Part shown: positions 4,806 through 45,726 of the stretch, piece after piece
How positions within the stretch are numbered: the first letter of the stretch is position 1
Layout of the letters: each line of letters starts with the position of its first letter
NCBI GenBank assembly: GCA_017559385.1
Contig: JAFYSK010000042.1
Location: 1 to 47,352 of the forward strand
DNA: 47,352 nucleotides
Source: Paludibacteraceae bacterium
Lineage (GTDB): Bacteria; Bacteroidota; Bacteroidia; Bacteroidales; Paludibacteraceae
Direction of reading: 5' to 3'
Notes under the pieces: model-generated
The model's database searches: none
Told to the model about the DNA's origin: nothing
The model's input: the letters and a program-made list of their open reading frames with translations, nothing else
Program-made: the position numbers and the translations under genes

Positions 4806-4842
4806 CCCGATAACCGTTAACCGATAACCAATATCCGCTATC
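4806..4842. repeat. Low-complexity dispersed repeat (CCGATAACC type)
   Basis: Imperfect copies of CCGATAACCG, CCGATAACC and CCGCTATCC fill the gap and form the last codons and stop of the radical SAM gene. Similar CCGATAGCCC-type words occur in the insertion inside the HPr-kinase-like gene at 39.1 kb. Confidence 0.5.
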
Positions 4843-5965
4843 CATGACCCATCAACTTATTATGATGGCAGAGCATCAATGCGCCATCTTCACGGCGGAG
4901 GTGCATTCCCCCACCATCGCAATAGCGGAAGAGTTTGCAATTGTTGCATGGTTCTAACTTCTTCATCCACTTACGATTGCGATATGGCTCAAAGCCATTC
5001 TCCCATACCTCCCAGAAGTCATCTTTATAAATATTGCCTTGGTAGTACTTGCCACGCACACTCGTACAAGCCGAAATACTACCATCTACCAAGATCGAAG
5101 CTATACTTATTCCCGCCGCACAATGAAACAAGTGGTCGCGCACTTCCATCTCATAATCAGGCATAAAGCCCTCGCAGGAGTAGGAGATATGCAAACCTTG
5201 TTTGCGTTTCTCACGGATATAGTCTAACACTTGGCGATGTTGCTCGGGAGTCAGAATAAGTTCGGGATTCTCTGCCGCACGCCCCATAGGGTCAATGGTG
5301 ATAAGTCGCCAGTTGCGCACTCCTATTGACCAGAGGTATTGCTGCATCTCGTCTAATTGATTGATAGTGCGTTGGTTAACACAAGTAACGACGTCCCAGA
5401 CTAGAGCGCTATGCTGCAGATCGGCTTCGCCTGAAGATCGCCCTCCGGGCTGTAGATCGCTCCGCTGTAGTGATGCAGCTAATTTGATAGCTCGTGTTGC
5501 ACCTTCAAAGGCAAGTGGGTGTTGGCGGAGCCAGTTATGGTCGAGTTCTAAGCCATCAAAGCTAATGGCAATAGAGCGCAAACCCGCAGCCATGAGTTCT
5601 TTAAAACGTTTTTCGGTAAGTGCCAATCCATTGGTGACCATGCCCCAAGGATAGCCGCGTTGCTTGAGCGCTACACCCACCTCGGCGAGGTCCTTGCGCA
5701 TCAGCGGCTCGCCACCAGATATGATAATCAGCACCTTATGTGGATCGACATGAGGGGTAACGGATTGATCAATCACACGAAGGAAATCCTCAGCGGGCAT
5801 GTCGGGTGTGATCTCGGAGCTAGAGCAGTCACTACCACAGTGCAGGCAATGCACATTGCAGCGGAGGGTGGACTCCCAAAAGAGTTGTTGCAGCGGGTGC
5901 AACTGCTGGAGGTTCTTGCGGCGAAGCCGCTCAAGCTCGAATATAATGCGTTTGCGAAGGTTCAT
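4838..5965 (-). CDS. Radical SAM/SPASM enzyme of the rSAM/lipoprotein type
   Basis: 375 residues. The radical SAM cluster motif CNVHCLHC gives ligands C36, C40 and C43. GGEP at 84-87 and an ISFDG strand near 134 fit the partial TIM barrel. A C-terminal SPASM region has cysteines at 282, 300, 340, 343, 349 and 366 for auxiliary clusters. From memory it matches the TIGR04133-type enzymes that sit beside small lipoproteins (rSAM/lipoprotein system), and three such lipoproteins lie just upstream. The expected role is post-translational modification of those lipoproteins; the chemistry is unknown. ATG is 7 bases after the TonB-like gene, so it is cotranscribed. Oddity: residues about 163-186 (including LQRSDLQ) are encoded by a dispersed palindromic repeat inserted in frame in the barrel. 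Confidence 0.88.
   Translation of the reverse strand: MNLRKRIIFELERLRRKNLQQLHPLQQLFWESTLRCNVHCLHCGSDCSSSEITPDMPAEDFLRVIDQSVTPHVDPHKVLIIISGGEPLMRKDLAEVGVALKQRGYPWGMVTNGLALTEKRFKELMAAGLRSIAISFDGLELDHNWLRQHPLAFEGATRAIKLAASLQRSDLQPGGRSSGEADLQHSALVWDVVTCVNQRTINQLDEMQQYLWSIGVRNWRLITIDPMGRAAENPELILTPEQHRQVLDYIREKRKQGLHISYSCEGFMPDYEMEVRDHLFHCAAGISIASILVDGSISACTSVRGKYYQGNIYKDDFWEVWENGFEPYRNRKWMKKLEPCNNCKLFRYCDGGGMHLRREDGALMLCHHNKLMGHG
5414..5478. repeat. GATCTACAG-family palindromic element inside the radical SAM gene
   Basis: About 65 bases made of three hairpin cores (GGCTTCGCC, GCCCTCCGGGC, CGCTCCGCTG) separated by GATC-containing flanks. It is the same family as the intergenic arrays near 24.9, 41.2 and 42.4 kb. 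It keeps the reading frame open and adds about 22 residues. Confidence 0.8.
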
Positions 5966-16908: not shown

Positions 16909-18522
16909 ATGAAGACAAAAGTTATAATCATAATAACATTGGTAATATGTTGCTCCTGCTCGAAAAAGACCACTATTGAGTGTGATGAGTTGCAGGAGGC
17001 GATATCACAAGTATGGCTGGATGCGGATGTGGCGCATGAGGTATTGGGGCAAATAGACATCAACTCCATCAATTACTACGAGCAGCAGCGCTACCGCCTG
17101 GCAGAAGCCCATCTAATGCTCAAGCGCGAACTAAGATTGCCTAGCGGAAGCGATATGGATGCGTTGGCGAAATACTTTGAGAGTTGCGAGGATGAAGCCA
17201 GTGTGGCAGAAGCCTATTATATACAAGGTGCATATTTAAACTGGCTAGGCAAGAACACCCAAGCCATGCAATACCTGAAGAAAGCAGAGAGCAATTCGGC
17301 GACTGCCATCATCAGAGGCATGACTTACTACAAGATGGGACGAATCAGCGAGAGCGAACAACTATATGACATTGCCCTAGAGAACTACCAGAAAGCACTA
17401 CCCTATTTAGAAGAAGCGGGATTACCTTTGTACTTGGCTTCAGTATATCGCGAACTAGGACGTAACACGAATAATGATAGCAGAAACCAGTATTTTGACA
17501 AAGCACTAACAGCGGCTCGGTTTATGGGAGATAGTATCTTGCAGATGGACATTCGATATGCACAACTATCTGCTAGTGAGCCTAATTCGCCAGAAATAGC
17601 AAGCATATGCCAATACATGTGCCATCAAGTAGGGCAAAAGCGATATGCGTATGACTTGGTGAAATATTATATTCGTACACACAAAGCCGATTCAGCAAAG
17701 ATATATCTTGATATTTTGGCCACAGATACCACCGCACAGATATGGAGTGCGCAGCAGCATTCCCTTTGGAAAAGCCAATACTTACACCTGAAAGGTCAAG
17801 ACAAAGAAGCGTATGAATCGCTGTATGATTTGTACAACGCATACTACAAGGAAGTGGAAGAGCAAGGAAGCGCTAGTGCGTTTGTAGCAGCGCAACACTA
17901 TGATAATGAGGTAGAAAAAGCGAAGAACTTGCAACTAGAATTGGACAAGCAGCGCCTATATATTGCCTTGGCTTTGGTACTAGTTGGGGTGTTGTGTGTC
18001 GTAATCATGGCGATCTTATTGATCACTCGTCAGCGGGCCAAGCATATGGTGGAGCAGGTGCGCTCGCAACAGGAGATTGTTCACCTGAAAGAGGAATTGA
18101 ATATTCGTCGCAACTCGCTCAAACGCATTATGAATCAGCGCATTGAGCTAAACAAGAACCTCCAAGAAGCCATATTGAGCCGCAAGAAAGAGGAGAGCAT
18201 CCCGCAATGGGCAAAAGCGTTTGTAGAACAGAATATTTTCTCCACGGAAGAGCAATGGCAAGACTTCTTGAAAGAGTTTGAAGAAGCCTACGGCGATATA
18301 CTAGCCAAACTGCAAAGCACCTACCCAAGACTCACCTCCACAGACCTACAAGTGATCGCCTTATATATATTAGGAATAGACAATTCAGATATTTGCCTCT
18401 TGACGGGTGCCAGCCAACGCACGATCTGGAGCCGCAGAATGCGCATCAAGAACCGAATAGGACTGGGCGAGAAAGAGTCGCTAGATAAGTGGATTGAGAG
18501 AGAGTTGAGAGTTGAGAGTTAA
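16909..18522 (+). CDS. TPR sensor-like protein with transmembrane helix and HTH
   Basis: 537 residues. An N-terminal hydrophobic signal with cysteines (VICCSCSKK; C15 or C17 may be lipidated) is followed by TPR-like helical repeats (about 60-330). A transmembrane helix is at about 346-367 (LALVLVGVLCVVIMAILLI) and a coiled coil at about 375-430. A C-terminal LuxR/sigma-like HTH (about 470-530: LTSTDLQVIALYILGIDNSD, RTIWSRRMRIKNRIGL) ends the protein. This layout, periplasmic TPR plus cytoplasmic HTH, is common in Bacteroidetes and suggests a one-protein membrane regulator. It is next to the envelope lipoprotein region; control of that region is only an inference. Its last codons come from a TTGAGAG repeat shared with aroC. 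Confidence 0.82.
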   Translation: MKTKVIIIITLVICCSCSKKTTIECDELQEAISQVWLDADVAHEVLGQIDINSINYYEQQRYRLAEAHLMLKRELRLPSGSDMDALAKYFESCEDEASVAEAYYIQGAYLNWLGKNTQAMQYLKKAESNSATAIIRGMTYYKMGRISESEQLYDIALENYQKALPYLEEAGLPLYLASVYRELGRNTNNDSRNQYFDKALTAARFMGDSILQMDIRYAQLSASEPNSPEIASICQYMCHQVGQKRYAYDLVKYYIRTHKADSAKIYLDILATDTTAQIWSAQQHSLWKSQYLHLKGQDKEAYESLYDLYNAYYKEVEEQGSASAFVAAQHYDNEVEKAKNLQLELDKQRLYIALALVLVGVLCVVIMAILLITRQRAKHMVEQVRSQQEIVHLKEELNIRRNSLKRIMNQRIELNKNLQEAILSRKKEESIPQWAKAFVEQNIFSTEEQWQDFLKEFEEAYGDILAKLQSTYPRLTSTDLQVIALYILGIDNSDICLLTGASQRTIWSRRMRIKNRIGLGEKESLDKWIERELRVES

Positions 18523-18532
18523 GAGTTGAGAG
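18493..18532. repeat. TTGAGAG tandem repeat at the joint 3' ends of two genes
   Basis: About five imperfect TTGAGAG units encode the C-terminus of the TPR/HTH protein on one strand and of AroC on the other. The two stop codons overlap within the palindrome TTAA at 18519-18522. Confidence 0.7.
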
Positions 18533-19553
18533 CTGTGAGGAAGTCCTGAAGGACTAGTGCAGCCATTGCCTCTACCACAGCTACGGCACGGACAGCAATA
18601 CAAGCATCATGACGACCAACTTTGAGCCCTAGGGGCTGTTCCAAAGGTTTTAAAGGTTCTAATAGTTTTAAAGGTTGAGAGTTGAGAGTTGAGAGTGTTT
18701 TGCGGTTGGTAGCCGTAGGCTTGAACACACAACGGAAAACAATCGGATTGCCATCCGAAATACCACCTGCTATACCGCCTGAGATAAGTTGAGGATCATT
18801 GGATAGATACATCTCGCTCCCCTTCAAACCTACGCCTTCAAATCCCGAACCATACTCAAAACCCTTGCAAGCATTAATAGAAAGCATGGCGTACGCCAGA
18901 TGACTTTGGAGTTTGTCAAAAATAGGTTCGCCGAGCCCAACAGGAAGGCCGGTGATTATACACTCAACTATGCCACCTATACTATCGCCTTGTTGCTGAA
19001 TATCAGCGATATATTGCGCAAAGTTATCGGGATTAGTTTCATTGCCCACTTGGATAAGTTGGGCGGAAATTTGGATATTTTTCTCGGCAAGTAATTGTTG
19101 CGCAACTGCACCTGCCACCACGCGTGAAGCTGTCTCACGCGCCGAAGCACGACCACCCCCACGATGGTCACGAATACCGTACTTCTCCTGGTAGGTACGG
19201 TCGGCATGACCTGGGCGATAGTTATCCTTGAGCCAGTCGTAGTCCTCTGAACGAGCATCTGCATTGCGGATAATAAAGGCGATAGGTGTACCCAAGGTCA
19301 CTCCATCGAGCACGCCACTAAGCCACTCGACCTCGTCCGCTTCGCGCTTTGCGCGTGGAGAAACTCCTGCCCCTCGCCTTATCGTCTCATCGCCTTTAGC
19401 CTCAAACCTTCCCGCGCGTTTATCCAAAGCCTCACGGATCCTATCCAAATCAATGCGCACACCCGCAGGCACACCATCCAGCACACCGCCGACAGCTCGA
19501 CCATGCGACTCCCCAAAAGAGGTAAAAACGAAGTTTTTGCCAAGAGTATTCAT
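18519..19553 (-). CDS. aroC: Chorismate synthase
   Basis: 344 residues from the ATG at 19553 (NTLGKNFVFTSFGESHGRA, the family's standard start; the longer frame to 19637 is A/T-rich and crosses the promoter). AroC converts 5-enolpyruvylshikimate-3-phosphate to chorismate with reduced FMN. Signatures seen: GESHGRAVGG, RPGHADRTY, DHRGGGRASARETASRV, GRHDACIAVRAV. Two places are unusual. Between RAGR and SPRAKREAD (about residues 50-65) there is a Gly/Arg-rich insert from a dispersed repeat. Before GRHDAC about 20 residues (STLNSQPLKLLEPLKPLEQP) come from TTGAGAG and TTTTAAAGG repeats. Both sit at normal loop positions, so the enzyme may still work. aroA is 6 kb away, not in the same operon. Confidence 0.95.
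   Translation of the reverse strand: MNTLGKNFVFTSFGESHGRAVGGVLDGVPAGVRIDLDRIREALDKRAGRFEAKGDETIRRGAGVSPRAKREADEVEWLSGVLDGVTLGTPIAFIIRNADARSEDYDWLKDNYRPGHADRTYQEKYGIRDHRGGGRASARETASRVVAGAVAQQLLAEKNIQISAQLIQVGNETNPDNFAQYIADIQQQGDSIGGIVECIITGLPVGLGEPIFDKLQSHLAYAMLSINACKGFEYGSGFEGVGLKGSEMYLSNDPQLISGGIAGGISDGNPIVFRCVFKPTATNRKTLSTLNSQPLKLLEPLKPLEQPLGLKVGRHDACIAVRAVAVVEAMAALVLQDFLTALNS
18641..18695. repeat. TTTTAAAGG plus TTGAGAG repeats inside aroC
   Basis: 18641-18675 holds CAAAGGTTTTAAAGGTTCT and a second GTTTTAAAGG; 18675-18695 is exactly three TTGAGAG units. They stay in frame and replace the loop before GRHD. The first type recurs in aroA (25203-25243) and glgB (44305-44345). Confidence 0.7.
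19341..19408. repeat. GGCGATGAG-type repeat inside aroC
   Basis: On the coding strand the words AAGGCGATGAGACGATAAGG and CGCGCAAAGCGCGAAGCG are seen. The first closely matches GAGGCGATGAGGCGAGAGG in the HPr-kinase-like gene (39100-39120). The encoded peptides share GDE (AKGDETIRRG and ERGDEARG). Confidence 0.55.
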
Positions 19554-19574
19554 GCGAAAAATTGATTTCGGTTG

Positions 19575-19582
19575 CAAAATTA
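19575..19582 (-). promoter_or_regulatory. -7 box for aroC
   Basis: TAATTTTG on the minus strand, 21 bases before the aroC ATG. It is divergent from, and close to, the promoter at 19592-19622. No clean -33 box. Confidence 0.5.
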
Positions 19583-19591
19583 CAAAAAAAA

Positions 19592-19622
19592 TTGCATATA
19601 TGAAAAAAAAGTTGTAACTTTG
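19592..19622 (+). promoter_or_regulatory. Promoter of the SGNH-like gene
   Basis: TTG at 19592-19594, 20-base spacer, TAACTTTG at 19615-19622; ATG at 19663. Confidence 0.8.
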
Positions 19623-19662
19623 CACGTTAATTTGCATTTATAGACACATAAAATAATAAGTT

Positions 19663-24925: not shown

Positions 24926-25060
24926 GTAGATCGGCACTTTGTGCCTGTAGATCGCCCTTCGGGCTGAAGATCGGCTTCGCCTGAAGACTACAGCGTAGCG
25001 ATCCACAGCGAGCACAGCGAACGATCTACAACGCAGTGATCTACAGCGAGTATAACGAGC
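24926..25060. repeat. GATCTACAG-family palindromic array
   Basis: Between DPP III and aroA. Hairpin cores GGCACTTTGTGCC, GCCCTTCGGGC, GGCTTCGCC and CAGCGTAGCG are separated by TGTAGATCG/GAAGATCGG-type flanks, then CGATCTACAACGCAGTGATC units. No promoter is visible in the gap. Confidence 0.8.
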
Positions 25061-25069
25061 GAACTTTCA

Positions 25070-26221
25070 ATGAATATTGAACTTCCCATATCGAAGTCGA
25101 TTGCCAATCGTTTATTGATTTTGCAAGCAATACACAGAGACGGTCTTTTGGCCGTCTCTGCTGATATGCCTGATGATGTACACGTTCTTCACCGAGCTCT
25201 AGCAACCCTTAAAACTTTTAGAACTTCTAAAACCCCTTCGACGCTACATCTTAATGTAGCTAATTGCGGCACTGCCATGCGCTTCCTCACCGCTTATTGC
25301 GCGCAACTAGAGGAACAAACGAGTGTTTTGGATGGTGTGGAACGTATGCACCATCGTCCTATAGGTCAGTTGGTAGACGCTCTGCGCGAGATGGGTGCAC
25401 AGATCGAGTATTTAGGACAAGAAGGTTACCCTCCTCTACGTATTACTGGATGTAAACTAGATAAGCATAGGATAGTGACTATCAATAACCCACTATCCAC
25501 GCAGTTTGTTTCTGCCTTATTGCTTATCGGTGCTAACGTCCAAACCGATTGCACCTCCCCTTACATCACCCTCACCAGCGAGATGATAAAGAATAAGGAA
25601 CAAGGAACCAAGAATAAAGACAAATTACTAACGACAGATCAGACGCCGGTAACAAATCTTGGCTCTTTACTCCTTGCTCCTTACTCAGAAATTGAACGTG
25701 ATTGGTCGTCTGCCGCCTTTTGGTACGAGTATGTCGCTTTGCACGGCGGTGAGATTACGCTACCTGGCCTTTATCAAGACTCCCTGCAAGGCGACAAGGT
25801 CGTTGCTGACATCTTCGCCCACCTTGGAGTTCACACTACTTACACCGCCGAAGGCATCACCCTCTCGCCTACAGGCGTAGCCGATCTACAGCGTAGCGAC
25901 CTTCAGGGCATTTATGCCCGATCTATAGCGCAGCGATCTGCGGAAGAAATCTTATGCCAAGATTTCTCCGCCTGCCCCGACCTATACCCTGCCGTTGCAC
26001 TTACCTGTGAAAAAATGGGCATACGACTAGAGGCAACTGGAGTTGATCGTTTACCTCTCAAAGAGAGCAACCGACTACTCGCCGTGCGCGAACATCGCGT
26101 AGAGGCAGATCATCGAATGGCCATGGCATTGCTTGTAGCAGGCTACGCAGTAGATGATGTAGAATGCATCAAAAAATCATATCCTGAATTCTTGGAGCAA
26201 TGGAAAACAATCACAGCATAA
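25070..26221 (+). CDS. aroA: 3-phosphoshikimate 1-carboxyvinyltransferase (EPSP synthase)
   Basis: 383 residues. It makes 5-enolpyruvylshikimate-3-phosphate from shikimate-3-phosphate and PEP, the step before AroC. Signatures: PISKSIANRLLIL at the N-terminus, NCGTAMRFLTAYC, STQFVSALLLIGA, ERDWSSAAFWYEYVAL, LPLKESNRL and a DHRMAMALLVAGYAV end. Three segments come from dispersed repeats, all in frame: about residues 45-58 (TTTTAAAGG type), about 174-206 (CAAGGAACC type, KNKEQGTKNKDK...), and about 272-292 (GATCTACAG type, containing LQRSDLQ). They fall between conserved blocks, so activity may be kept. The gene overlaps the following glycosyltransferase by 22 bases. Confidence 0.94.
   Translation: MNIELPISKSIANRLLILQAIHRDGLLAVSADMPDDVHVLHRALATLKTFRTSKTPSTLHLNVANCGTAMRFLTAYCAQLEEQTSVLDGVERMHHRPIGQLVDALREMGAQIEYLGQEGYPPLRITGCKLDKHRIVTINNPLSTQFVSALLLIGANVQTDCTSPYITLTSEMIKNKEQGTKNKDKLLTTDQTPVTNLGSLLLAPYSEIERDWSSAAFWYEYVALHGGEITLPGLYQDSLQGDKVVADIFAHLGVHTTYTAEGITLSPTGVADLQRSDLQGIYARSIAQRSAEEILCQDFSACPDLYPAVALTCEKMGIRLEATGVDRLPLKESNRLLAVREHRVEADHRMAMALLVAGYAVDDVECIKKSYPEFLEQWKTITA
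25203..25243. repeat. TTTTAGAACTTC-type repeat inside aroA
   Basis: CCTTAAAACTTTTAGAACTT and CTAAAACCCC words, the reverse-strand form of the TTTTAAAGG repeat in aroC and glgB; encodes TLKTFRTSKTP. Confidence 0.55.
25589..25687. repeat. CAAGGAACC-family palindromic element inside aroA
   Basis: About 99 bases. Left arm GGAACAAGGAACCAAGA (25597-25613); right arm TCTTGGCTC...TCCTTGCTCC (25657-25680), an imperfect inverted copy. The intergenic element at 42250-42345 has the same arms and spacing. It is in frame, adding about 33 residues. Confidence 0.75.
25883..25943. repeat. GATCTACAG-family element inside aroA
   Basis: GATCTACAGCGTAGCGACC, then core GGGCATTTATGCCC, then GATCTATAGCGCAGCGATC. 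It is in frame and encodes DLQRSDLQGIYARSIAQRS; LQRSDLQ is also encoded by the copy in the radical SAM gene. Confidence 0.82.
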
Positions 26222-26970: not shown

Positions 26971-27330
26971 TTACTCTGCAGGAGTTTCAGCTGGAACCTC
27001 TACAGGAGCCTCTGCGTTCTCCTCGAATTCTGGTACAGCTTGTGCAGCTTGTTGTTGCTCAACTGTCTCTTGAGCCTTGGTTGCTACGTCGCTATCACCA
27101 GACTCTACCTCTGTCTTACTAAATCCTACTGATACGATACTCAAAGCAATGATAAGAGCCATCAATGTCCAGCTTGCTTTCTCCAAGAAGTCAGCAGTCT
27201 TAGGAGCACCCATTACTTGGTTACCACTAGAGAATCCAGCAGCCAAACCACCACCCTTGCTGTTTTGAACAAGAACCAAAAGGATAAGCAACACTGCTGC
27301 GATTACAATCAAAATAGATAATAAAGCCAT
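26971..27330 (-). CDS. secG: Preprotein translocase subunit SecG
   Basis: 119 residues. Two membrane helices (about 3-20 and 54-72) flank the conserved NSKGGGLAAGFSSGNQVMGAPKTADFLEKASW loop, here seen as NSKGGGLAAGF and QVMGAPKTADFLEK. The C-terminal 45 residues are an acidic Glu/Ala/Pro/Val tail, longer than in E. coli but common in Bacteroidetes. SecG assists SecYE during protein export in the inner membrane. It has its own full promoter and a terminator beyond the 3' end. Confidence 0.95.
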   Translation of the reverse strand: MALLSILIVIAAVLLILLVLVQNSKGGGLAAGFSSGNQVMGAPKTADFLEKASWTLMALIIALSIVSVGFSKTEVESGDSDVATKAQETVEQQQAAQAVPEFEENAEAPVEVPAETPAE

Positions 27331-28289: not shown

Positions 28290-29534
28290 ATGGATTTACA
28301 AAAGGTAAAACAACAATTTAACATCATCGGTAATAGCCCATTGCTGAACAGAGGGATTGAGATTGCTACACAAGTGGCTATCACCGAACTTAGTGTACTC
28401 ATCACCGGAGAGTCAGGTGCAGGTAAAGAGCATTTCCCAAAGATCATACATCACTATTCATCTCGCAAGCATGAACCATATTTTGCTATCAACTGTGGTG
28501 CCATACCAGAAGGAACCATCGATAGCGAACTTTTTGGCCACGAAAAAGGTGCCTTTACCGATGCTCGTTCGGAGAGAAAAGGCTACTTCGAGATTGCTAA
28601 TAAAGGAACTTTATTCTTGGACGAAGTGGGTGAATTGCCACTATCCACTCAAGCCCGCCTTTTACGAGTGCTAGAAACGGGCGAATTCATACGCGTAGGA
28701 TCAAGCCAAGTACAGAAAACCAATGTTCGAGTAGTGGCTGCAACCAACCTGGATATTCCACGTGCCATCAAAGAGGGCAAATTTCGAGAGGATCTATATT
28801 ACCGTCTAAATGAGGTTGGTCTGATTGTCCCTGCACTACGCGAACGAAAAGAGGACATACCTTTGCTAATCAGAAAATTTGCTCGTGACTTTGCAGATAA
28901 ATATCAAATGCCTGCTATTAGTTTGACTGAAGAAGCATTGGAGATTGCAAAAAACTACTACTGGCGTGGCAATGTTCGTCAGTTGAAGAATGTAGTAAAT
29001 CAAATTAGCATTATTGAGCGCAGACGCGAAATCACACCTGACATCCTACTACATTATCTACCTCGCAACGAGCAATATACGGGGCTAGTAGCGGTTAACC
29101 CACAACCAAACGGCAATAATTATCAAGATACCACCAATATCGCTGTCCTACAAAAGATCGTACTGAGTCTTAACAATGATATCATGGTGCTCAAACAACA
29201 GATGGACGAGCTAAAAGCACAGATTAACATGAATGGTGCAAAGCCTATCCTATTAGACAAGGGCGAAACAATTGAAGAAGCGGACACATTGGGTACAGAC
29301 AAACGCCAAAAACCTATTATTGAGGACATCACAACCGAACCAATTATAGAGGAGGTGACACCTATCAACACCCACCCCATAGCCATCAATAAGATAGCTG
29401 ACCGCGATAGAGATCGAGAAGCCATCAAAGATGCACTAGAAGCTACAGGAGGAAATCGAAAAGCAGCGGCTGCGCTACTAGGTGTCAGTGAAAGAACGCT
29501 ATACAGAAAACTGAAAGAAGAAAGCAAGGAGTAA
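28290..29534 (+). CDS. Sigma-54-type AAA+ activator with Fis HTH, variant GAFTGA loop
   Basis: 414 residues. There is no receiver domain; the AAA+ domain starts at once. Walker A GESGAGKE is at 40-47, the loop GAFTDA at 87-92, Walker B GTLFLDEVGEL near 106-116, and sensor/arginine-finger segments follow (RVVAATNLDI, FREDLYYRLN). A linker with acidic repeats (about 265-350) precedes a Fis-type HTH (about 375-412, NRKAAAALLGVSERTLYRKL). In the family GAFTGA contacts sigma-54; the G-to-D change at position 5 could weaken or alter that contact. In Bacteroidales this gene is commonly linked with lptE, as here (2-base gap). Targets are unknown. Confidence 0.9.
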   Translation: MDLQKVKQQFNIIGNSPLLNRGIEIATQVAITELSVLITGESGAGKEHFPKIIHHYSSRKHEPYFAINCGAIPEGTIDSELFGHEKGAFTDARSERKGYFEIANKGTLFLDEVGELPLSTQARLLRVLETGEFIRVGSSQVQKTNVRVVAATNLDIPRAIKEGKFREDLYYRLNEVGLIVPALRERKEDIPLLIRKFARDFADKYQMPAISLTEEALEIAKNYYWRGNVRQLKNVVNQISIIERRREITPDILLHYLPRNEQYTGLVAVNPQPNGNNYQDTTNIAVLQKIVLSLNNDIMVLKQQMDELKAQINMNGAKPILLDKGETIEEADTLGTDKRQKPIIEDITTEPIIEEVTPINTHPIAINKIADRDRDREAIKDALEATGGNRKAAAALLGVSERTLYRKLKEESKE

Positions 29535-36796: not shown

Positions 36797-37942
36797 CTAT
36801 TTTTTAGCTGCATGCAGCAATGTCGCGATGAACTCATGCCATGCTAAACATGGGAATAGCTTAGCCATTTGGCATGAATCAAAGATGATTCGACTAACTG
36901 TATACATTTTTTGTAACAAACGATTCTTAGTTGGGCGTTCATATTTAAAGCATCTTATCAAGCCTATATCACCCAATGTAAACTTGGCAGTACGACCACA
37001 ATGTCCATCGCGCAGCAACTGACGAAGCAAACGCTTAGCTCGGTTGCGATAAGCTTGAGTATACAATGGAAACTCTTGACTAGGCAACTGCAATTGTTCT
37101 ACCAACACATGCCCAAAGGTTTGCCAAACCGTTTTCATATGCAAAGCCGTCAAGATAGCATCAATCTCACTACACAAGTTCTGCCACGCTTGAGGTGAAG
37201 ACTCTTCATAGGCTTGGTGCAAACATAAGGCCCAATCTGCTAATTGACGAAAGCCTACTCCCGTACTCTCAAAATGATGCCATGCGTGCATATAGACATA
37301 TAATGCATTATAAGCCGCACTAGGAACAGCTATCTGGGCATCTCCTAAGGTCATGCTAGAAGGCTGAGCCATATACTTACGCGTAAAATCCTGATATAAT
37401 GCATCCGCCTTCTTGTCATGAAACTCCATTGTCACACGATGCAATTCCACTACACGGTCTTGATTTTCATCTAGCACCAAGATATAATGTATTCCTCCAC
37501 GAATATCAGAGTGCCAATGTGCTTGTGGATAAGCAGCAGTTATAATCTCCGCAGCACGATGATAGTTTTCTTCGCCCACATAGATATCCACATCTCCAAA
37601 ATCACGCATATCCGGATCAGGATATAGTCCAGCTATACTTGCACCTTTGATCAAAGTCGCAGGTATTTGGTTCTGCGATAAAGTGGACAAAACCTCTACA
37701 GCCAAATGATTGAGGCGGGCATGACGCCCCAACAGAACATATACCCCTGATTGCAACTGTTGATCATAGGGGGTAACAATACGATTTGCTTTAGTCCACA
37801 CACTAAAGGCGTGCAAACATTTTTGCCGAGCCGCTAGTTTCAGCAATGCCTTCCAATCAACATCAGAAGGAACATCCGCAGATGTTCCCCACGCTATCGA
37901 TCGTAGAATAGCAAAAAATATGTCCTCTTGCCCCCTAAACAC
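36797..37942 (-). CDS. Nucleotidyltransferase-family protein (PF14907-like)
   Basis: 381 residues with a probable GTG start at 37942, 11 bases after the PqqD-like stop; the GTG lies within a CTAAACAC repeat. The signature is TLIKGASIAGLYPDPDMRDFGDVDIYV (here LIKG at 97-100 and RDFGDVDI at 113-120), followed by VELHRVTMEFHDK and a helical C-terminal half. Members of this family are often found in lasso-peptide and related RiPP clusters, next to PqqD-like proteins and HPr-kinase-like proteins, exactly as here; the transferred group and acceptor are unknown. No signal peptide. Confidence 0.83.
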   Translation of the reverse strand: MFRGQEDIFFAILRSIAWGTSADVPSDVDWKALLKLAARQKCLHAFSVWTKANRIVTPYDQQLQSGVYVLLGRHARLNHLAVEVLSTLSQNQIPATLIKGASIAGLYPDPDMRDFGDVDIYVGEENYHRAAEIITAAYPQAHWHSDIRGGIHYILVLDENQDRVVELHRVTMEFHDKKADALYQDFTRKYMAQPSSMTLGDAQIAVPSAAYNALYVYMHAWHHFESTGVGFRQLADWALCLHQAYEESSPQAWQNLCSEIDAILTALHMKTVWQTFGHVLVEQLQLPSQEFPLYTQAYRNRAKRLLRQLLRDGHCGRTAKFTLGDIGLIRCFKYERPTKNRLLQKMYTVSRIIFDSCQMAKLFPCLAWHEFIATLLHAAKK

Positions 37943-37953
37943 TAAACCTTAAA

Positions 37954-38220
37954 CTATCTAATAATTCCTATCTCCTTCCAGTCGTCGATAGTGGCTTGCG
38001 CATCCTCGCGAGCTATTTCCTCCGCTACATCGTACTCTGCTAGCAGCAGTTGAGTCAGAGTCTCCACATCAAAATCCTTACCCTGAACATTCTGCCATAG
38101 ATATGCCGCAGCTTCATTAAAAGTAATGATGTTATTGAAGTTAACGAGTTCTGCACTCTCACCAATCAGTATGTAATCACCACCTAACTCACGCAAGCGG
38201 AACCCTTTTTTAGTTCTCAT
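37954..38220 (-). CDS. PqqD-like protein (RiPP recognition element)
   Basis: 88 residues. The winged-helix PqqD fold is visible: FRLRELGGDYILIGE, the conserved NFNNIITFNEAAAYLWQNV, then a helical half ending in DDWKEIGII. PqqD-like domains hold leader peptides of ribosomal peptides for modifying enzymes. Here no precursor peptide gene and no radical SAM or cyclase is adjacent. The start ATG overlaps the end of the peptidase gene by 11 bases, indicating tight coupling. Confidence 0.87.
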   Translation of the reverse strand: MRTKKGFRLRELGGDYILIGESAELVNFNNIITFNEAAAYLWQNVQGKDFDVETLTQLLLAEYDVAEEIAREDAQATIDDWKEIGIIR

Positions 38221-38667: not shown

Positions 38668-39618
38668 TTATCGTTTTACAACACCATCCCAGCACACTCG
38701 AGCTGCCTCCTGATTTGGCAGGCACGCTAGATGATAGCACGGTGTATGTGTAATGACATGCTTGATTGTTTCAAACAAATTATCCGCCATAGATTGCTCC
38801 ATCTTCAATCCCGAAGCAGACGACAACATATAGGCATACGCCTGAGGCAAAGTGATAGAACTTATCTGATTTTCAGGAGCCTGACTCAATTTGATGATAC
38901 CTCCTACCGGAGCACTATCATTTTTATAACATGGCGTTTTGCCACTCCATGGCGAGCCATACACTCGTACTTCGCCATCATCTATCACACGCAGAATAGG
39001 ATTGTCATCATTCAATAACCATGCGTCTTCAAATTTCGCCAACCATTGTCTTGCATGCGTCGATTTACCCGTCCCACTATGACCAAGGAACAAGTATCCT
39101 CTCGCCTCATCGCCTCTCTCCTCTCCTATAGCCGATAGCCCATTGCCCATAACCTCTCTCTTCACCACCACCGCAGCATGCATCTCTAATGTCATCAGCG
39201 GAGCTGTACGAAAAGCATACATCAGCATCAGGCCATTGTCAATGCAAAAGCGCACATTTTGACAGTCTCCAGCAATATACAACTGCCCATGCGTAAAGTC
39301 GCCATTGCATGCTAGTTCGCAGCAGATAGGTGATGTAGCTATTTGCGAAACGCGTATCAGCCACTCTTTTTCGGAAGAACGATACACCTCTATGCGAGGC
39401 ATATCGTCTTCAGAATTATCGGTAAAAGTGTGTTGGTAAACCAAACGTTCCTCTTCATTGAGCAATCCGTTCTGCTCTACCCTCAACGCAAATATGGGTT
39501 CTACATCTAGGTCTTGAGCCACACTAAACGGTTCATAATTCGTCATCTGAGCCAGCAACATCTCATTGCTACTCTCCACCTGAAAATTATGTCCCGCTAC
39601 GCAGTATATCCTAATCAC
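38668..39618 (-). CDS. HPr-kinase-like P-loop protein
   Basis: 316 residues. The N-terminal 140 residues are beta-rich. The P-loop GHSGTGKST is at 179-187, followed by NDDNPILRV and YGSPWSGKT, the HPr kinase/phosphorylase-like active-site segments; the C-terminus is helical. Family knowledge: such HprK-related kinases occur in RiPP clusters and can phosphorylate peptides or proteins on serine. Residues about 154-173 (REVMGNGLSAIGEERGDEAR) are encoded by a low-complexity repeat inserted directly before the conserved GYLFLGHSG strand. First gene of the cassette, 43 bases after cysS, without a visible promoter. Confidence 0.82.
   Translation of the reverse strand: MIRIYCVAGHNFQVESSNEMLLAQMTNYEPFSVAQDLDVEPIFALRVEQNGLLNEEERLVYQHTFTDNSEDDMPRIEVYRSSEKEWLIRVSQIATSPICCELACNGDFTHGQLYIAGDCQNVRFCIDNGLMLMYAFRTAPLMTLEMHAAVVVKREVMGNGLSAIGEERGDEARGYLFLGHSGTGKSTHARQWLAKFEDAWLLNDDNPILRVIDDGEVRVYGSPWSGKTPCYKNDSAPVGGIIKLSQAPENQISSITLPQAYAYMLSSASGLKMEQSMADNLFETIKHVITHTPCYHLACLPNQEAARVCWDGVVKR
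39100..39159. repeat. GGCGATGAG / CCGATAGCCC repeat inside the HPr-kinase-like gene
   Basis: 60 bases in frame. Plus-strand words CCTCTCTCCTCTCC, TATAGCCGATAGCCC and CATTGCCCATAACC; the coding strand carries GAGGCGATGAGGCGAGAGG, shared with aroC (19.37-19.40 kb). Confidence 0.6.
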
Positions 39619-39619
39619 T

Positions 39620-39658
39620 AAACACTAAACTCTAAACTCTAAACTCTAAACACTAAAC
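39620..39658. repeat. CTAAACACTAAACTCTAAAC simple repeat
   Basis: Seven imperfect 7-base units (ACTAAAC / TCTAAAC) fill the gap between cysS and the HPr-kinase-like gene. Short pieces of the same repeat occur at 37938-37950 and near 1590-1605. Confidence 0.7.
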
Positions 39659-41129: not shown

Positions 41130-41397
41130 TAGTTCACTTCGTTTGTAGATCGCTACGCTATAGATCGCTGCGTTGTAGATCACTTCGCTGTAGATCACTT
41201 CGTTGTAGATCGCTTCGCTCGAAGACTTCTAGAAGTCTACAGGGCTCTGCCCGATCTACAGGACGTAAGTCCGATCTACCATCTACAGGGCTCTGCCCGA
41301 TCTACAGGACGCAAGTCCGATCTACCATCTACAGGGCTCCGCCCGATCTACAGGCGCGTTGCGCCGATCTACCATCTACAGCCGCAAAGCGGCGATC
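41130..41397. repeat. Large GATCTACAG-family hairpin array
   Basis: About 14 units fill the gap between nagB and cysS. Constant flank CGATCTAC(C/AG) alternates with hairpin cores whose stems differ but stay complementary: GGGCTCTGCCC, GGACGTAAGTCC, GGACGCAAGTCC, GGGCTCCGCCC, GGCGCGTTGCGCC, CCGCAAAGCGG; the first part uses GCTACGC, GCTGCG, ACTTCG and GCTTCGC cores. The last unit forms the nagB stop region. No promoter seen. Confidence 0.88.
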
Positions 41398-42207: not shown

Positions 42208-42249
42208 GGTTTTATTGTTTTATGTTGTTAATAAATTTCGTTTTTGATT

Positions 42250-42345
42250 CAGGAGCAAGGAACAAGGAGCAAAGACTTATTACTTTCGTCTATGTAGTCG
42301 CTACTGATATGTCTTGGTTCCTGGCTCTTGGTTCTTTATTCAGTC
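42250..42345. repeat. CAAGGAACC-family palindromic element, intergenic copy
   Basis: Left arm AGGAGCAAGGAACAAGGAGC (42251-42270) then AAAGAC; right arm GTCTTGGTTCCTGGCTCTTG (42311-42330) then GTTC. Same arms, length and internal spacing as the copy inside aroA. Confidence 0.75.
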
Positions 42346-42421
42346 CACAGGGCTCTGCCCGATCTACAGCGAAGCGATCTACAGGGCGCAAGCCCGATCC
42401 ACAGCCCTTTAGGGCGATCTG
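42346..42421. repeat. GATCTACAG-family array before the glgB stop
   Basis: Cores GGGCTCTGCCC, CGAAGCG, GGGCGCAAGCCC and CCCTTTAGGG separated by GATCTACAG or GATCCACAG, ending at the glgB stop codon. Confidence 0.82.
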
Positions 42422-44509
42422 TTAGTCCTTCTGGACTAACACCACTGCGCTTCTTGCAGGCAAGTACAACTGCAACCAGCCCTTGCCTTCCTTCAAGTAG
42501 CCGTCATCTGGCATCGTGAAGTGCTCCACACTATCGTCCGACAAACCGAAGCCCGCAAACTCCGTCGCATCCGTGTTCAGCACCACTTTGTACTTACCCG
42601 CCTTGACAGGAATACCATAACCGTCAAAGGACTTCACACCATTCCAGTTAAAGACAAACACCAACTTTCCGCGTTGGTATGCCACCACTTGGTCGCCCTC
42701 GTTGTCGCACAACTTCTCCACCCATGGTAGGTGCACGCCGCACTTATCTTTCACAGGTGCTAAGTTCTCCTTCAAAAGGTGTACCATTGCCTCGTCAAAC
42801 TTATTGAGGTTGCTGAAGAAATAACGCTCATTATCCACCAAGCTCCATTGACGACGCGCATACTTATGACTCCAACCATTGCCCTGACGAGGAAAATCTA
42901 TCCACTCTGGATGACCAAACTCATTACCCATAAAATTCAAGTAGCCACCATTAATCGTCGAAGCCGTGATCAGTCGTATCATCTTGTGCAACGCCAAACC
43001 ACGGTCCACCATGTAAGTCGCATGACCGTGCTCAAAATGCCAATACATATCCGCGTCGCACAATCGGAAGATAATCGTCTTATCGCCCACCAACGCTTGG
43101 TCGTGGCTCTCTGCGTAGGAGATGGTCTTCTCATCCTCGCGGCGGTTGGTCATCTCATAGAAGATATGTCCCGCTTTCCAATCCTCGTCACGCACTTCCT
43201 TGATATACTTGATCCAGAAATCTGGAATACCCATCGCCAAGCGATAGTCAAAGCCCATACCGCCATCTTTCACTGCACAAGCCAAACCAGGCATACCCGA
43301 CATATCCTCCGCAATCGTGATCGCACCTTTCTTCACTTCGTGAATCAGCTTGTTCGCCAAGGTCAAGTAGCAAATCGCATCGCCATCCTCGTTGCCGTTG
43401 TAGTAGCAAGAATAGTCCACAAAATCCTCTCCCAAACCATGACTCTTGTACATCATTGAGGTCACGCCGTCAAAGCGAAAACCGTCAAAGCCGTACACAT
43501 CCATCCAGTATTTGCAGTTCGACAGCAAGAAGTGCAACACCTCTGTCTTGCCGTAATCAAAGCACAAACTATCCCATGCTGGATGCTCTCTGCGACCACC
43601 GGCGTGGAAGTATTGATAAGGCGTTCCGTCGAAGTTACCCAGGCCCTCCAACTCATTCTTCACCGCATGCGAATGCACAATATCCATTATCACATCCATG
43701 CCGTATGCGTGTGCATCATCAATCAGACGCTTCAACTCCTCTGGTGTACCGCAGCGTGATGACACAGCAAAGAAGTTAGACACGTGATAACCAAAACTAC
43801 CGTAGTATGGATGTTCTTGAATAGCCATAATCTGCAAGCAGTTGTAGCCCAATTTCGCAATGCGAGGCAGCACATCTATGCGGAACTCCTCGTATGAGTT
43901 CACCTTCTCCTCTTCACTCGACATTCCGATATGGCACTCGTAGATAAACAACGGATCATTCGCCTTGCGACGCTTCACCTTAACTCCCTTCCCTTTAGGG
44001 AGGGGTTGGGGGTAGGCTGCCTGCTCCGTAGGCGCCCACACTTGCGCCGCAAACAGCTTCGTCACAGGATCTTGCACCACGCGGTTGGTATAACTAGGAA
44101 TACGCTCACCTTTGCCACCATACCACTCTACTAGCAGTTTGTAGAGTTGCTCGTGCTTGATCATATCCTCATCCAGCACCACTTCCCATACGCCATCACC
44201 CACAGGTTGCAAACGATACGCCTCATCTTTCTGCCAATTGTTAAAGTCGCCTATCATGTAGATAGCTGTCGCATTAGGTGCCCACTCACGCAGCACCCAT
44301 TGCCCACCTTGAAACTTTGAAACTTTGGAACTTTTAGAACCCTCTATTTTGTGTAAACCAAAATAGAGATATCCATTCGCCCATTCACTCAGTTTCTTTC
44401 CGCCTGTTAGTTCTTGTTCGCGTTTGAGTGCATAGTTGTATCGTCCTTCGATGGCTTCAGCATAAGGACGCAAGTAGGTGTCTGATTGTATTAGTTTGAG
44501 CGTTTTCAT
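42422..44509 (-). CDS. glgB: 1,4-alpha-glucan branching enzyme
   Basis: 695 residues from the ATG at 44509 (a TTG one codon earlier is not needed). GH13 enzyme that adds alpha-1,6 branches to glycogen. An N-terminal CBM48-like domain (about 30-150: WVLREWAPNATAIYMIGDFN) leads to the GH13 barrel with IYECHIGMSSEEEKV, GFDGFRFDGVTSMMY (nucleophile Asp), TIAEDMSGMPG (acid Glu) and SYAESHDQALVGDK (transition-state Asp). Two low-complexity repeats lie in frame: before GGQWVLREW (SKSSKVSKF) and within YPQPLPKGKGVKVKRR ahead of FIYECH. Both are in linkers. Full promoter upstream. Confidence 0.95.
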   Translation of the reverse strand: MKTLKLIQSDTYLRPYAEAIEGRYNYALKREQELTGGKKLSEWANGYLYFGLHKIEGSKSSKVSKFQGGQWVLREWAPNATAIYMIGDFNNWQKDEAYRLQPVGDGVWEVVLDEDMIKHEQLYKLLVEWYGGKGERIPSYTNRVVQDPVTKLFAAQVWAPTEQAAYPQPLPKGKGVKVKRRKANDPLFIYECHIGMSSEEEKVNSYEEFRIDVLPRIAKLGYNCLQIMAIQEHPYYGSFGYHVSNFFAVSSRCGTPEELKRLIDDAHAYGMDVIMDIVHSHAVKNELEGLGNFDGTPYQYFHAGGRREHPAWDSLCFDYGKTEVLHFLLSNCKYWMDVYGFDGFRFDGVTSMMYKSHGLGEDFVDYSCYYNGNEDGDAICYLTLANKLIHEVKKGAITIAEDMSGMPGLACAVKDGGMGFDYRLAMGIPDFWIKYIKEVRDEDWKAGHIFYEMTNRREDEKTISYAESHDQALVGDKTIIFRLCDADMYWHFEHGHATYMVDRGLALHKMIRLITASTINGGYLNFMGNEFGHPEWIDFPRQGNGWSHKYARRQWSLVDNERYFFSNLNKFDEAMVHLLKENLAPVKDKCGVHLPWVEKLCDNEGDQVVAYQRGKLVFVFNWNGVKSFDGYGIPVKAGKYKVVLNTDATEFAGFGLSDDSVEHFTMPDDGYLKEGKGWLQLYLPARSAVVLVQKD
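43984..44018. repeat. CCCTTTAGGGAGGGG repeat inside glgB
   Basis: The palindrome CCCTTTAGGG followed by AGGGGTTGGGGGTAGGC encodes AYPQPLPKGKG on the minus strand. This G-rich motif is common as a stray intergenic repeat in Bacteroidetes, but here it is coding. Confidence 0.6.
44305..44345. repeat. GAAACTTTGAAACTTTGG repeat inside glgB
   Basis: CTTGAAACTTTGAAACTTTG and GAACTTTTAGAACC words; the same type as in aroA (25203-25243) and aroC (18641-18675). Encodes GSKSSKVSKFQ in frame. Confidence 0.6.
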
Positions 44510-44552
44510 CAACGAAATATTTACAATATTTGCAGTTTATTAAAATCGGGTG

Positions 44553-45442: not shown

Positions 45443-45508
45443 ACGCACTATTCACGCACTATTCACGCACAATAGACGCACAATAAGCGCACAATAGACG
45501 CACTATTC
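45443..45508. repeat. Six 11-bp tandem repeats
   Basis: Units ACGCACTATTC (twice), ACGCACAATAG, ACGCACAATAA, GCGCACAATAG, ACGCACTATTC, exactly 66 bases. The two versions differ by CTATTC versus CAATAG, which are near mirror complements. The rest of 45367-45793 has a T-rich stretch, a run of G (45690-45697) and the promoter of the next gene. Confidence 0.85.
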
Positions 45509-45726
45509 AGCAGCTTTCACTATGGGTTTACGCCGCCAAAATCGAATGCAAATATACAAAAAAATCTGCGAATTTCCAAATTTTCAGGAGATTATTTTTG
45601 AGAAATTGTAATGAAACAAATCTACAACATTCCCAAAAGCATATCTCAAAAAATACACACTCATAACCTACTGATTACCAACAACTAACGGGGGGGGTAA
45701 ATTGTATCAAAAAAAATCACAAAAGA

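What the first reader, a model, noticed from the sequence alone, without database searches (positions are those of the whole stretch)
25883..25943. Same repeat family inserted in frame in two unrelated enzymes, giving the same peptide
The copy in aroA encodes DLQRSDLQGIYARS and the copy in the radical SAM gene (5414-5478) encodes LQRSDLQPGGRSSGEADLQ. The shared LQRSDLQ shows insertion in the same frame and orientation relative to the gene. This parallels the Rickettsia palindromic elements that invade coding genes, but in a Bacteroidales host and with another sequence.
Basis: partly seen in the sequence, partly recalled or inferred. Interest (0 to 1): 0.85.

Follow-up and report, generated by a model that had tools for sequence, protein, structure and literature searches.

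The report
Hairpin repeats spliced into essential enzymes
In one group of gut bacteria, short strings of DNA hairpins have landed inside genes without breaking the reading frame, so that unrelated enzymes carry the same extra peptide, and the same two loops of one essential enzyme carry different repeat families in different species.

Summary
AroA (25070-26221) and a radical SAM enzyme (4838-5965, minus) each contain an in-frame array of one repeat. Its unit is an 8-base linker (GATCTACA) plus a mini-hairpin; linkers are nearly constant, stems vary but pair (204 of 263 pairs, shuffles at most 38%). Homologues lack it or carry something else at the same place. It matches 16 of 178 genomes of the genus (2 of them are another sequence) and, of 393 genomes sampled across the order, only this one. 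A sister family with linker GTCCWATA behaves alike. In-frame copies sit in MurF, LigA, NlpC/P60, RNase H, MurG-type, RecQ and other genes.

The two AroA loops changed repeat type at least 11 and 8 times.

Unexpected: in several genes the last hairpin uses host codons as one arm and an inverted copy as the other, pointing to foldback copying; Y1/RAYT transposases do not go with the repeat. Works like Rickettsia palindromic elements; not shown to be one.

The parts
25070..26221 (+). aroA, EPSP synthase, 383 aa, host gene with two inserts
   Evidence: PF00275 E=2.5e-46; K9 S10 R14 R96 Q145 D304 K331 E332 R335 D347 H348 R349 K369 invariant in 29 aligned rows
25869..25938 (+). family A mini-hairpin array inside aroA (site 2)
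   Evidence: shared with L069-L072
25940..25953 (+). 5' arm of terminal hairpin: inverted copy of host codons
25959..25971 (+). 3' arm of terminal hairpin = conserved host codons (DFSA before PDL)
25588..25690 (+). second insert in aroA (site 1), another imperfectly palindromic repeat (called family E here)
   Evidence: aligns with an intergenic copy near 42249-42350, better in reverse complement
4838..5965 (-). radical SAM/SPASM enzyme, host gene
   Evidence: PF04055, PF13186
5419..5470 (-). family A array inside the radical SAM gene
   Evidence: site empty in L196 and L198
24927..25046 (.). intergenic family A array, two orientations, between 24919 and aroA
41143..41397 (.). intergenic family A array, two orientations
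42344..42441 (+). intergenic family A array ending in a hairpin at the end of ORF 42422-44512
42249..42350 (.). intergenic copy of the family E repeat (approximate ends)

Best explanation
It is a lineage-specific family of very small repeats made of tandem DNA mini-hairpins joined by a constant 8-base linker. It multiplies in intergenic DNA and now and then lands in genes; copies are kept where they stay open in frame and fall in a loop that tolerates extra residues. Shown: repeat anatomy, in-frame presence in many genes, insertion against homologues in AroA and the radical SAM enzyme (and, against solved structures, LigA and MurF), restriction to part of one genus, reuse of the same loops by different repeats. 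Inferred: copies arise and grow by hairpin-dependent copying of single-stranded DNA (foldback or template switch), because the last hairpin of several in-gene arrays is built on host codons with an inverted copy of them, and because stems vary freely while staying paired. Inferred: the peptides are tolerated rather than useful, and the loops are exposed.
For: Pairing 204/263 (A) and 255/285 (B) in distinct spacers against shuffle maxima of 38% and 39%; the same linker patterns met in viral contigs show only 14% and 17% pairing. Empty site in close relatives of the radical SAM gene (L196, 91% identity, and L198). AroA alignment of 110 rows. Host genes with Pfam hits: AroA, radical SAM, MurF, LigA, YgiQ-like, NlpC/P60, epimerase, glycogen synthase, U32, RNase H, DUF4922, FemAB, TonB plug, ABC, MurG-type, RecQ, MBOAT, cytochrome assembly. 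Terminal hairpins: 6 of 30 in-gene 3' ends have stems of 9 or more, 0.10 expected (3 of the 6 are AroA site 2 in different lineages); in AroA the arm matches its own host codons 9-10 of 10 and those of the other repeat family's rows 5-7 of 10. No Y1 transposase match in G000; G014, with 6 A and 26 B hits at 98% completeness, is not among the 68 of 178 genomes with a Y1 match.
Against: 21 of 30 in-gene arrays show no stem of 6 or more at the 3' end. Host-arm changes in L070, L071 and L074 are not fully matched by the other arm, so pairing is not strictly kept. The constant linker is not explained by foldback copying. The MAG is 85% complete, so a transposase could be missing, and only PF01797 was searched. 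Recombination of aroA between species could account for part of the turnover. No expression or activity data.
Confidence: 0.6

Rival explanations
1. REP/MITE-like elements moved by a transposase that recognises the hairpin and a short tag, as proposed for REPs and RAYTs.
For: Reverse strand of the A unit ends in TGTAG and the B unit ends in CGTC (by eye); GTAG and CGTC are the tags of the two known REP super-families (Di Nocera 2013, PMC3733652: abstract, sections 5, 6, 15 and passages). Intergenic copies lie in both orientations.
Against: No PF01797 match in G000 or in carriers G014, G054, G119; 4 of 16 A-pattern genomes (3 of 14 without the two false ones) against 64 of 162 others have a match, so no association. 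Stems are not constant, and head-to-tail pairs are said to be absent or under-represented in known REPs.
Confidence: 0.2
2. Turnover at the AroA and radical SAM loops is mainly homologous recombination bringing in gene segments from relatives, with few original insertions.
For: L071, L078 and L079 share site-1 content and its flanks while differing at site 2; 8 of 24 inner branches of the core tree are well supported.
Against: Several unrelated repeat types occur at each site, so several insertions are needed whatever the recombination.
Confidence: 0.1
3. The inserted peptides are selected for a function (regulation, binding or solubility).
For: Copies persist across genomes in AroA, MurF, glycogen synthase and RNase H-like genes.
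Against: Unrelated peptides occupy the same site in sister genomes; the number of units varies between orthologues (L157, L158, L161); three frames are used.
Confidence: 0.06
4. Chance similarity or assembly artefact.
For: The genome is a fragmented MAG.
Against: Same AroA insert in separately assembled MAGs from water buffalo, roe deer and cattle; shuffles and reversed-pattern controls.
Confidence: 0.02

Closest known systems
Rickettsia palindromic elements (RPE)
   Same: Palindromic repeats found in frame inside unrelated conserved genes as well as between genes; orthologues can share an insert at the same locus (PMC2229807, PMC10969869, PMC3767692: passages only).
   Different: RPEs are elements of about 100-150 bp with a conserved encoded peptide; here arrays of units of about 15-23 bases with constant linker and free stems; other phylum; several repeat types at one site.
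GTAG- and CGTC-tagged REPs, including intragenic REPs and dRS3
   Same: Small hairpins, tag-like ends, copies inside ORFs in several free-living bacteria; CGTC type reported in Bacteroidetes (PMC3733652: abstract, sections 5, 6, 15, passages).
   Different: Known families are defined by stem and loop (GTAG stems mostly 6-9 bp); head-to-tail dimers absent or under-represented; GTAG type goes with RAYT genes, not associated here.
Coding palindromes of nematomorph mitochondria
   Same: Both hairpin arms lie in coding sequence; template switching and arm conversion were proposed (PMC6649704, passages).
   Different: There the inverted repeats encode conserved residues on both arms; no dispersed linker repeat is described in the passages seen.
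Small dispersed and tandem repeats of cyanobacteria (recalled, not read)
   Same: Very short hairpin repeats.
   Different: Not compared here.

Membership tests
Rickettsia palindromic elements | in-frame copies inside unrelated conserved genes | tested here: met
Rickettsia palindromic elements | single element of about 100-150 bp with conserved sequence | tested here: not met
   units of about 15-23 bases, 69 distinct spacers in family A
Rickettsia palindromic elements | found in Rickettsiales | tested here: not met
   named relatives are mostly Paludibacteraceae or Bacteroidales MAGs
Rickettsia palindromic elements | inserts in solvent-exposed regions of active proteins | not testable with these tools
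   structure prediction switched off; residues recalled as catalytic are kept
GTAG REP with RAYT | Y1 transposase gene (PF01797) in carrier genomes | tested here: not met
   weak matches in G121, G142, G025; genome incompleteness remains a caveat
GTAG REP with RAYT | GTAG at one end of the palindrome | tested here: inconclusive
   A unit reverse strand ends TGTAG, with T between stem and tag (by eye)
GTAG REP with RAYT | stem conserved within the family | tested here: not met
CGTC REP | CGTC end and CCA-like tail | tested here: inconclusive
   B units begin CCAATA or similar and end CGTC; the order in known elements is from recall
CGTC REP | 8-9 bp stem starting with AT pairs | tested here: not met
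   B stems begin with G, mostly 2-6 bp

The most novel reading that the evidence does not exclude
There is no fixed mobile element: arrays are grown by a strand-specific foldback process that turns local DNA, including host codons, into new hairpins joined by a lineage-specific linker, and so keeps feeding short in-frame peptides into tolerant loops of essential enzymes, where one repeat family is overwritten by another between sister species.
Probability: 0.3. Interest if true: 0.87.

Novelty: new variant of a known kind. Interest (0 to 1): 0.72.

Why it matters
In-frame invasion of essential genes by palindromic repeats is best known from Rickettsia. Here it is common in a gut Bacteroidales lineage, with several repeat types, recent enough that sister genomes differ at the same loop, and with junctions that may record how the DNA was made. 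That makes two open questions testable: how such repeats move without an evident transposase, and how new peptide loops enter enzymes.

Tried and rejected
Rfam: no family in the window at gathering score. tRNA: none. CRISPR-like reading (constant repeat, variable spacer) set aside by reasoning only: linker too short, spacers self-complementary; no cas search was made. In one search, L149, L163 and L164 (G116, G208) are DPVDP coding repeats; dropping them leaves 33 of 54 arrays with a spanning ORF, many orthologous, from the first places listed and not a random sample. L180:3190-4128 has no Pfam hit, so its host status rests on the ORF alone. The epimerase, NlpC/P60, YgiQ-like and most other hosts were not aligned with homologues lacking the insert.

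Rows dropped before counts: all 70 places and 42 of the 75 places listed were typed (left out: 14 of G000 already, 3 of G116 and G208, 16 repeats mostly of G136); 4 of these 112 were then dropped as not of the repeat, leaving 108. All 98 places listed were used, including two AT-only ones from G155 that are probably unrelated. For one search, 41 rows were cut to 29 by leaving out 12 orthologous rows, and one AroA row (L077) was added, 30 in all; some still share a gene (AroA four rows, the TonB-type gene several, one cytochrome gene two). The 5' ends were scanned over slightly more start places than the controls.

Ortholog scan of 43 window ORFs: 10 had at least 20 homologous loci; repeat-type inserts only in aroA and chorismate synthase; 26971-27330 and 28290-29534 had inserts of unknown type. 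Literature searches; two searches returned nothing, and among the papers listed by the others I saw none on such repeats in Bacteroidales or Paludibacteraceae beyond the mention of CGTC repeats in Bacteroidetes; the original Ogata papers were not read.

Full report
What is there. AroA (25070-26221, plus) and a radical SAM/SPASM enzyme (4838-5965, minus) each contain an in-frame stretch of the same repeat. The repeat is a tandem array: an 8-base linker GATCTACA, then a short hairpin that usually begins with G and ends with C, then the next linker. Units are mostly 15 to 23 bases. In the genome GATCYWYARN{3,18}GATCYW matches 70 times against 2 for the reversed pattern. The window holds five A clusters: two in genes, three between genes.

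The anatomy. I collected spacers (rows left out are told under Tried and rejected). Family A: 108 units, 69 distinct spacers, 204 of 263 possible pairs formed, shuffles mean 30% and at most 38%. A sister family B with linker GTCCWATA: 98 units, 63 distinct spacers, 255 of 285 pairs, shuffles at most 39%. Nine hairpins occur in both families, so linker and hairpin are separable. Among three-base loops on the linker strand GNA makes up 31 of 62 and its complement TNC 1 of 62 (counted by hand; related spacers are not independent). GNA loops make unusually stable DNA mini-hairpins (recalled; one search gave listings only), so the linker strand may be the one that folds. The linker patterns in viral contigs give unpaired spacers (14% and 17%), a negative control.

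Range. Family A matches 16 of 178 genomes of the genus; the hits of G116 and G208 are DPVDP coding repeats, leaving 14. Family B matches 16 of 178, 12 of them shared with A; the two hits of G155 are AT-only. Of 393 genomes drawn across the order, few of them from this genus, only this genome matches A. Named relatives are mostly Paludibacteraceae or Bacteroidales MAGs, many from herbivore guts.

The inserts are insertions. Of 110 aligned AroA rows 6 carry this array (query, L040, L069, L070, L072, and L071 with a changed peptide; L040 and L070 are identical in the core tree), at one site just before the conserved DFxxCPDL motif. The radical SAM site holds 19 more residues in the window than in L196 (91% identity), which is empty like L198; L194, L195 and L199-L201 carry other, repeat-like sequence at the same place (by eye). 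MurF and LigA also show extra residues against solved homologues (in LigA 36 residues, 411-446, against 12).

One loop, many repeats. AroA has two hot loops. At site 1 close relatives carry family E (window, L069), A (L070, L075), B (L073, L074, L077), a CCCC/GGGG repeat (L041, L042, L080, L081), and others; at site 2 A, B, and simple tandem types (labels by eye). On a tree of the AroA core the labels change at least 11 times (site 1) and 8 times (site 2) among 19 rows, 16 of them distinct. Only 8 of 24 inner branches of the whole tree are well supported, and recombination may inflate this. L242 (G039) has a third AroA insertion, family B, before the NCGTAMRF motif.

Other host genes. In this genome, 7 of 27 family A arrays lie in ORFs with Pfam support: AroA, radical SAM, epimerase (array beyond the matched domain), MurF, LigA, YgiQ-like, NlpC/P60; one more ORF has no Pfam hit. 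In other carriers, 36 of 57 arrays have a spanning ORF; three are false, leaving 33 of 54, many orthologous. Their hosts include glycogen synthase, U32 peptidase, RNase H, DUF4922, FemAB, TonB plug, ABC transporter, MurG-type, RecQ, MBOAT and a cytochrome assembly protein.

Frame and orientation. Same-sense A linkers in 15 genes fall in frame 0 (DLQ), 1 (RST), 2 (IY) as 19, 12, 4 (the printed legend swaps the last two names; one or two of the four may be stray matches outside an array). B linkers fall in frames 1 and 2 as 13 and 11, none in frame 0, which would read TAG. The linker strand is the coding strand in 13 of 15 A genes and in 9 of 10 B rows (8 of 9 genes). For A a stop in one antisense frame can explain part of this; for B with AATA linkers the antisense strand has no stop, so a real strand bias or a bias against the antisense peptide is likely. 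It would fit folding on the lagging-strand template, which is inference.

The junction. After the last linker of several in-gene arrays there is at once a long hairpin whose 3' arm is host coding sequence. Over all 195 array ends, stems of 8 or more occur in 32 against 4.1% of control places, but many intergenic ones look like terminators. In 30 in-gene arrays, 6 have a 3' stem of 9 or more pairs where 0.10 is expected from 6000 control places; 3 of the 6 are AroA site 2 in different repeat lineages, so independent loci are fewer (AroA, MurF, NlpC/P60, a TonB-type gene). At the 5' end 3 of 30 have 8 or more pairs, 0.32 expected. In AroA the 5' arm matches its own host codons 10 of 10 (9 of 10 in L074; A rows with one unpaired base), the codons of rows with the other family 5-7 of 10; among the B rows the cross values are 8-10. 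Since the host codons are conserved across the family, the 5' arm must be the copy. The simplest reading is foldback or template-switch synthesis at the junction. Against it: 21 of 30 show no stem of 6 or more.

Transposase. PF01797 has no match in G000. Across 178 genomes 68 match, among them 4 of the 16 A-pattern genomes (G121, G142, G025, G208, all weak; G208 is a false A carrier), so the two do not go together. Other transposase families were not searched.

Function of the host. In 29 aligned AroA rows the residues that I recall as catalytic in E. coli EPSP synthase are invariant, so the gene most likely works. Exposure of the loops could not be tested.

Comparison with the known. It works like Rickettsia palindromic elements, and intragenic REPs are known in other free-living bacteria (PMC3733652, section 15). 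It fails the conserved-element feature of RPEs and the conserved-stem and RAYT features of GTAG REPs. What differs is the build (constant linker, free stems, tandem), the turnover at fixed protein sites, and host codons used as a hairpin arm. I rate it a new variant of a known kind.

Noticed in passing
window 18519-19637 (minus), insert about 18640-18696: Chorismate synthase carries an in-frame CTCTCAACTCTCAACTC repeat (peptide TLNSQPLK...); aroA and this shikimate gene in one window both hold repeats.
   Followed up: partly
L185:3488-4894: MurF of the same genome holds two copies of a segment reading LNSQLSYTSSASDRSSKGEIRTLNS, besides the family A array.
   Followed up: partly
window 24927-25046, 41143-41397: Intergenic arrays flip orientation in the middle, so that linker strands run outward from a central palindrome.
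   Followed up: no
L183, L241, L179, L252, L245, L227, L247: Several intergenic arrays lie close beside a hairpin followed by a T run, like a rho-independent terminator.
   Followed up: no
window 37935-37955, 39618-39652, 45444-45509: Further simple tandem repeats (CTAAACACTAAAC, CGCACTATTCA) at or near gene borders.
   Followed up: no
family A units with GCGAGNNNNNCGAGC spacers: A recurrent spacer class has a stem interrupted by GA opposite GA, perhaps tandem G-A pairs.
   Followed up: no
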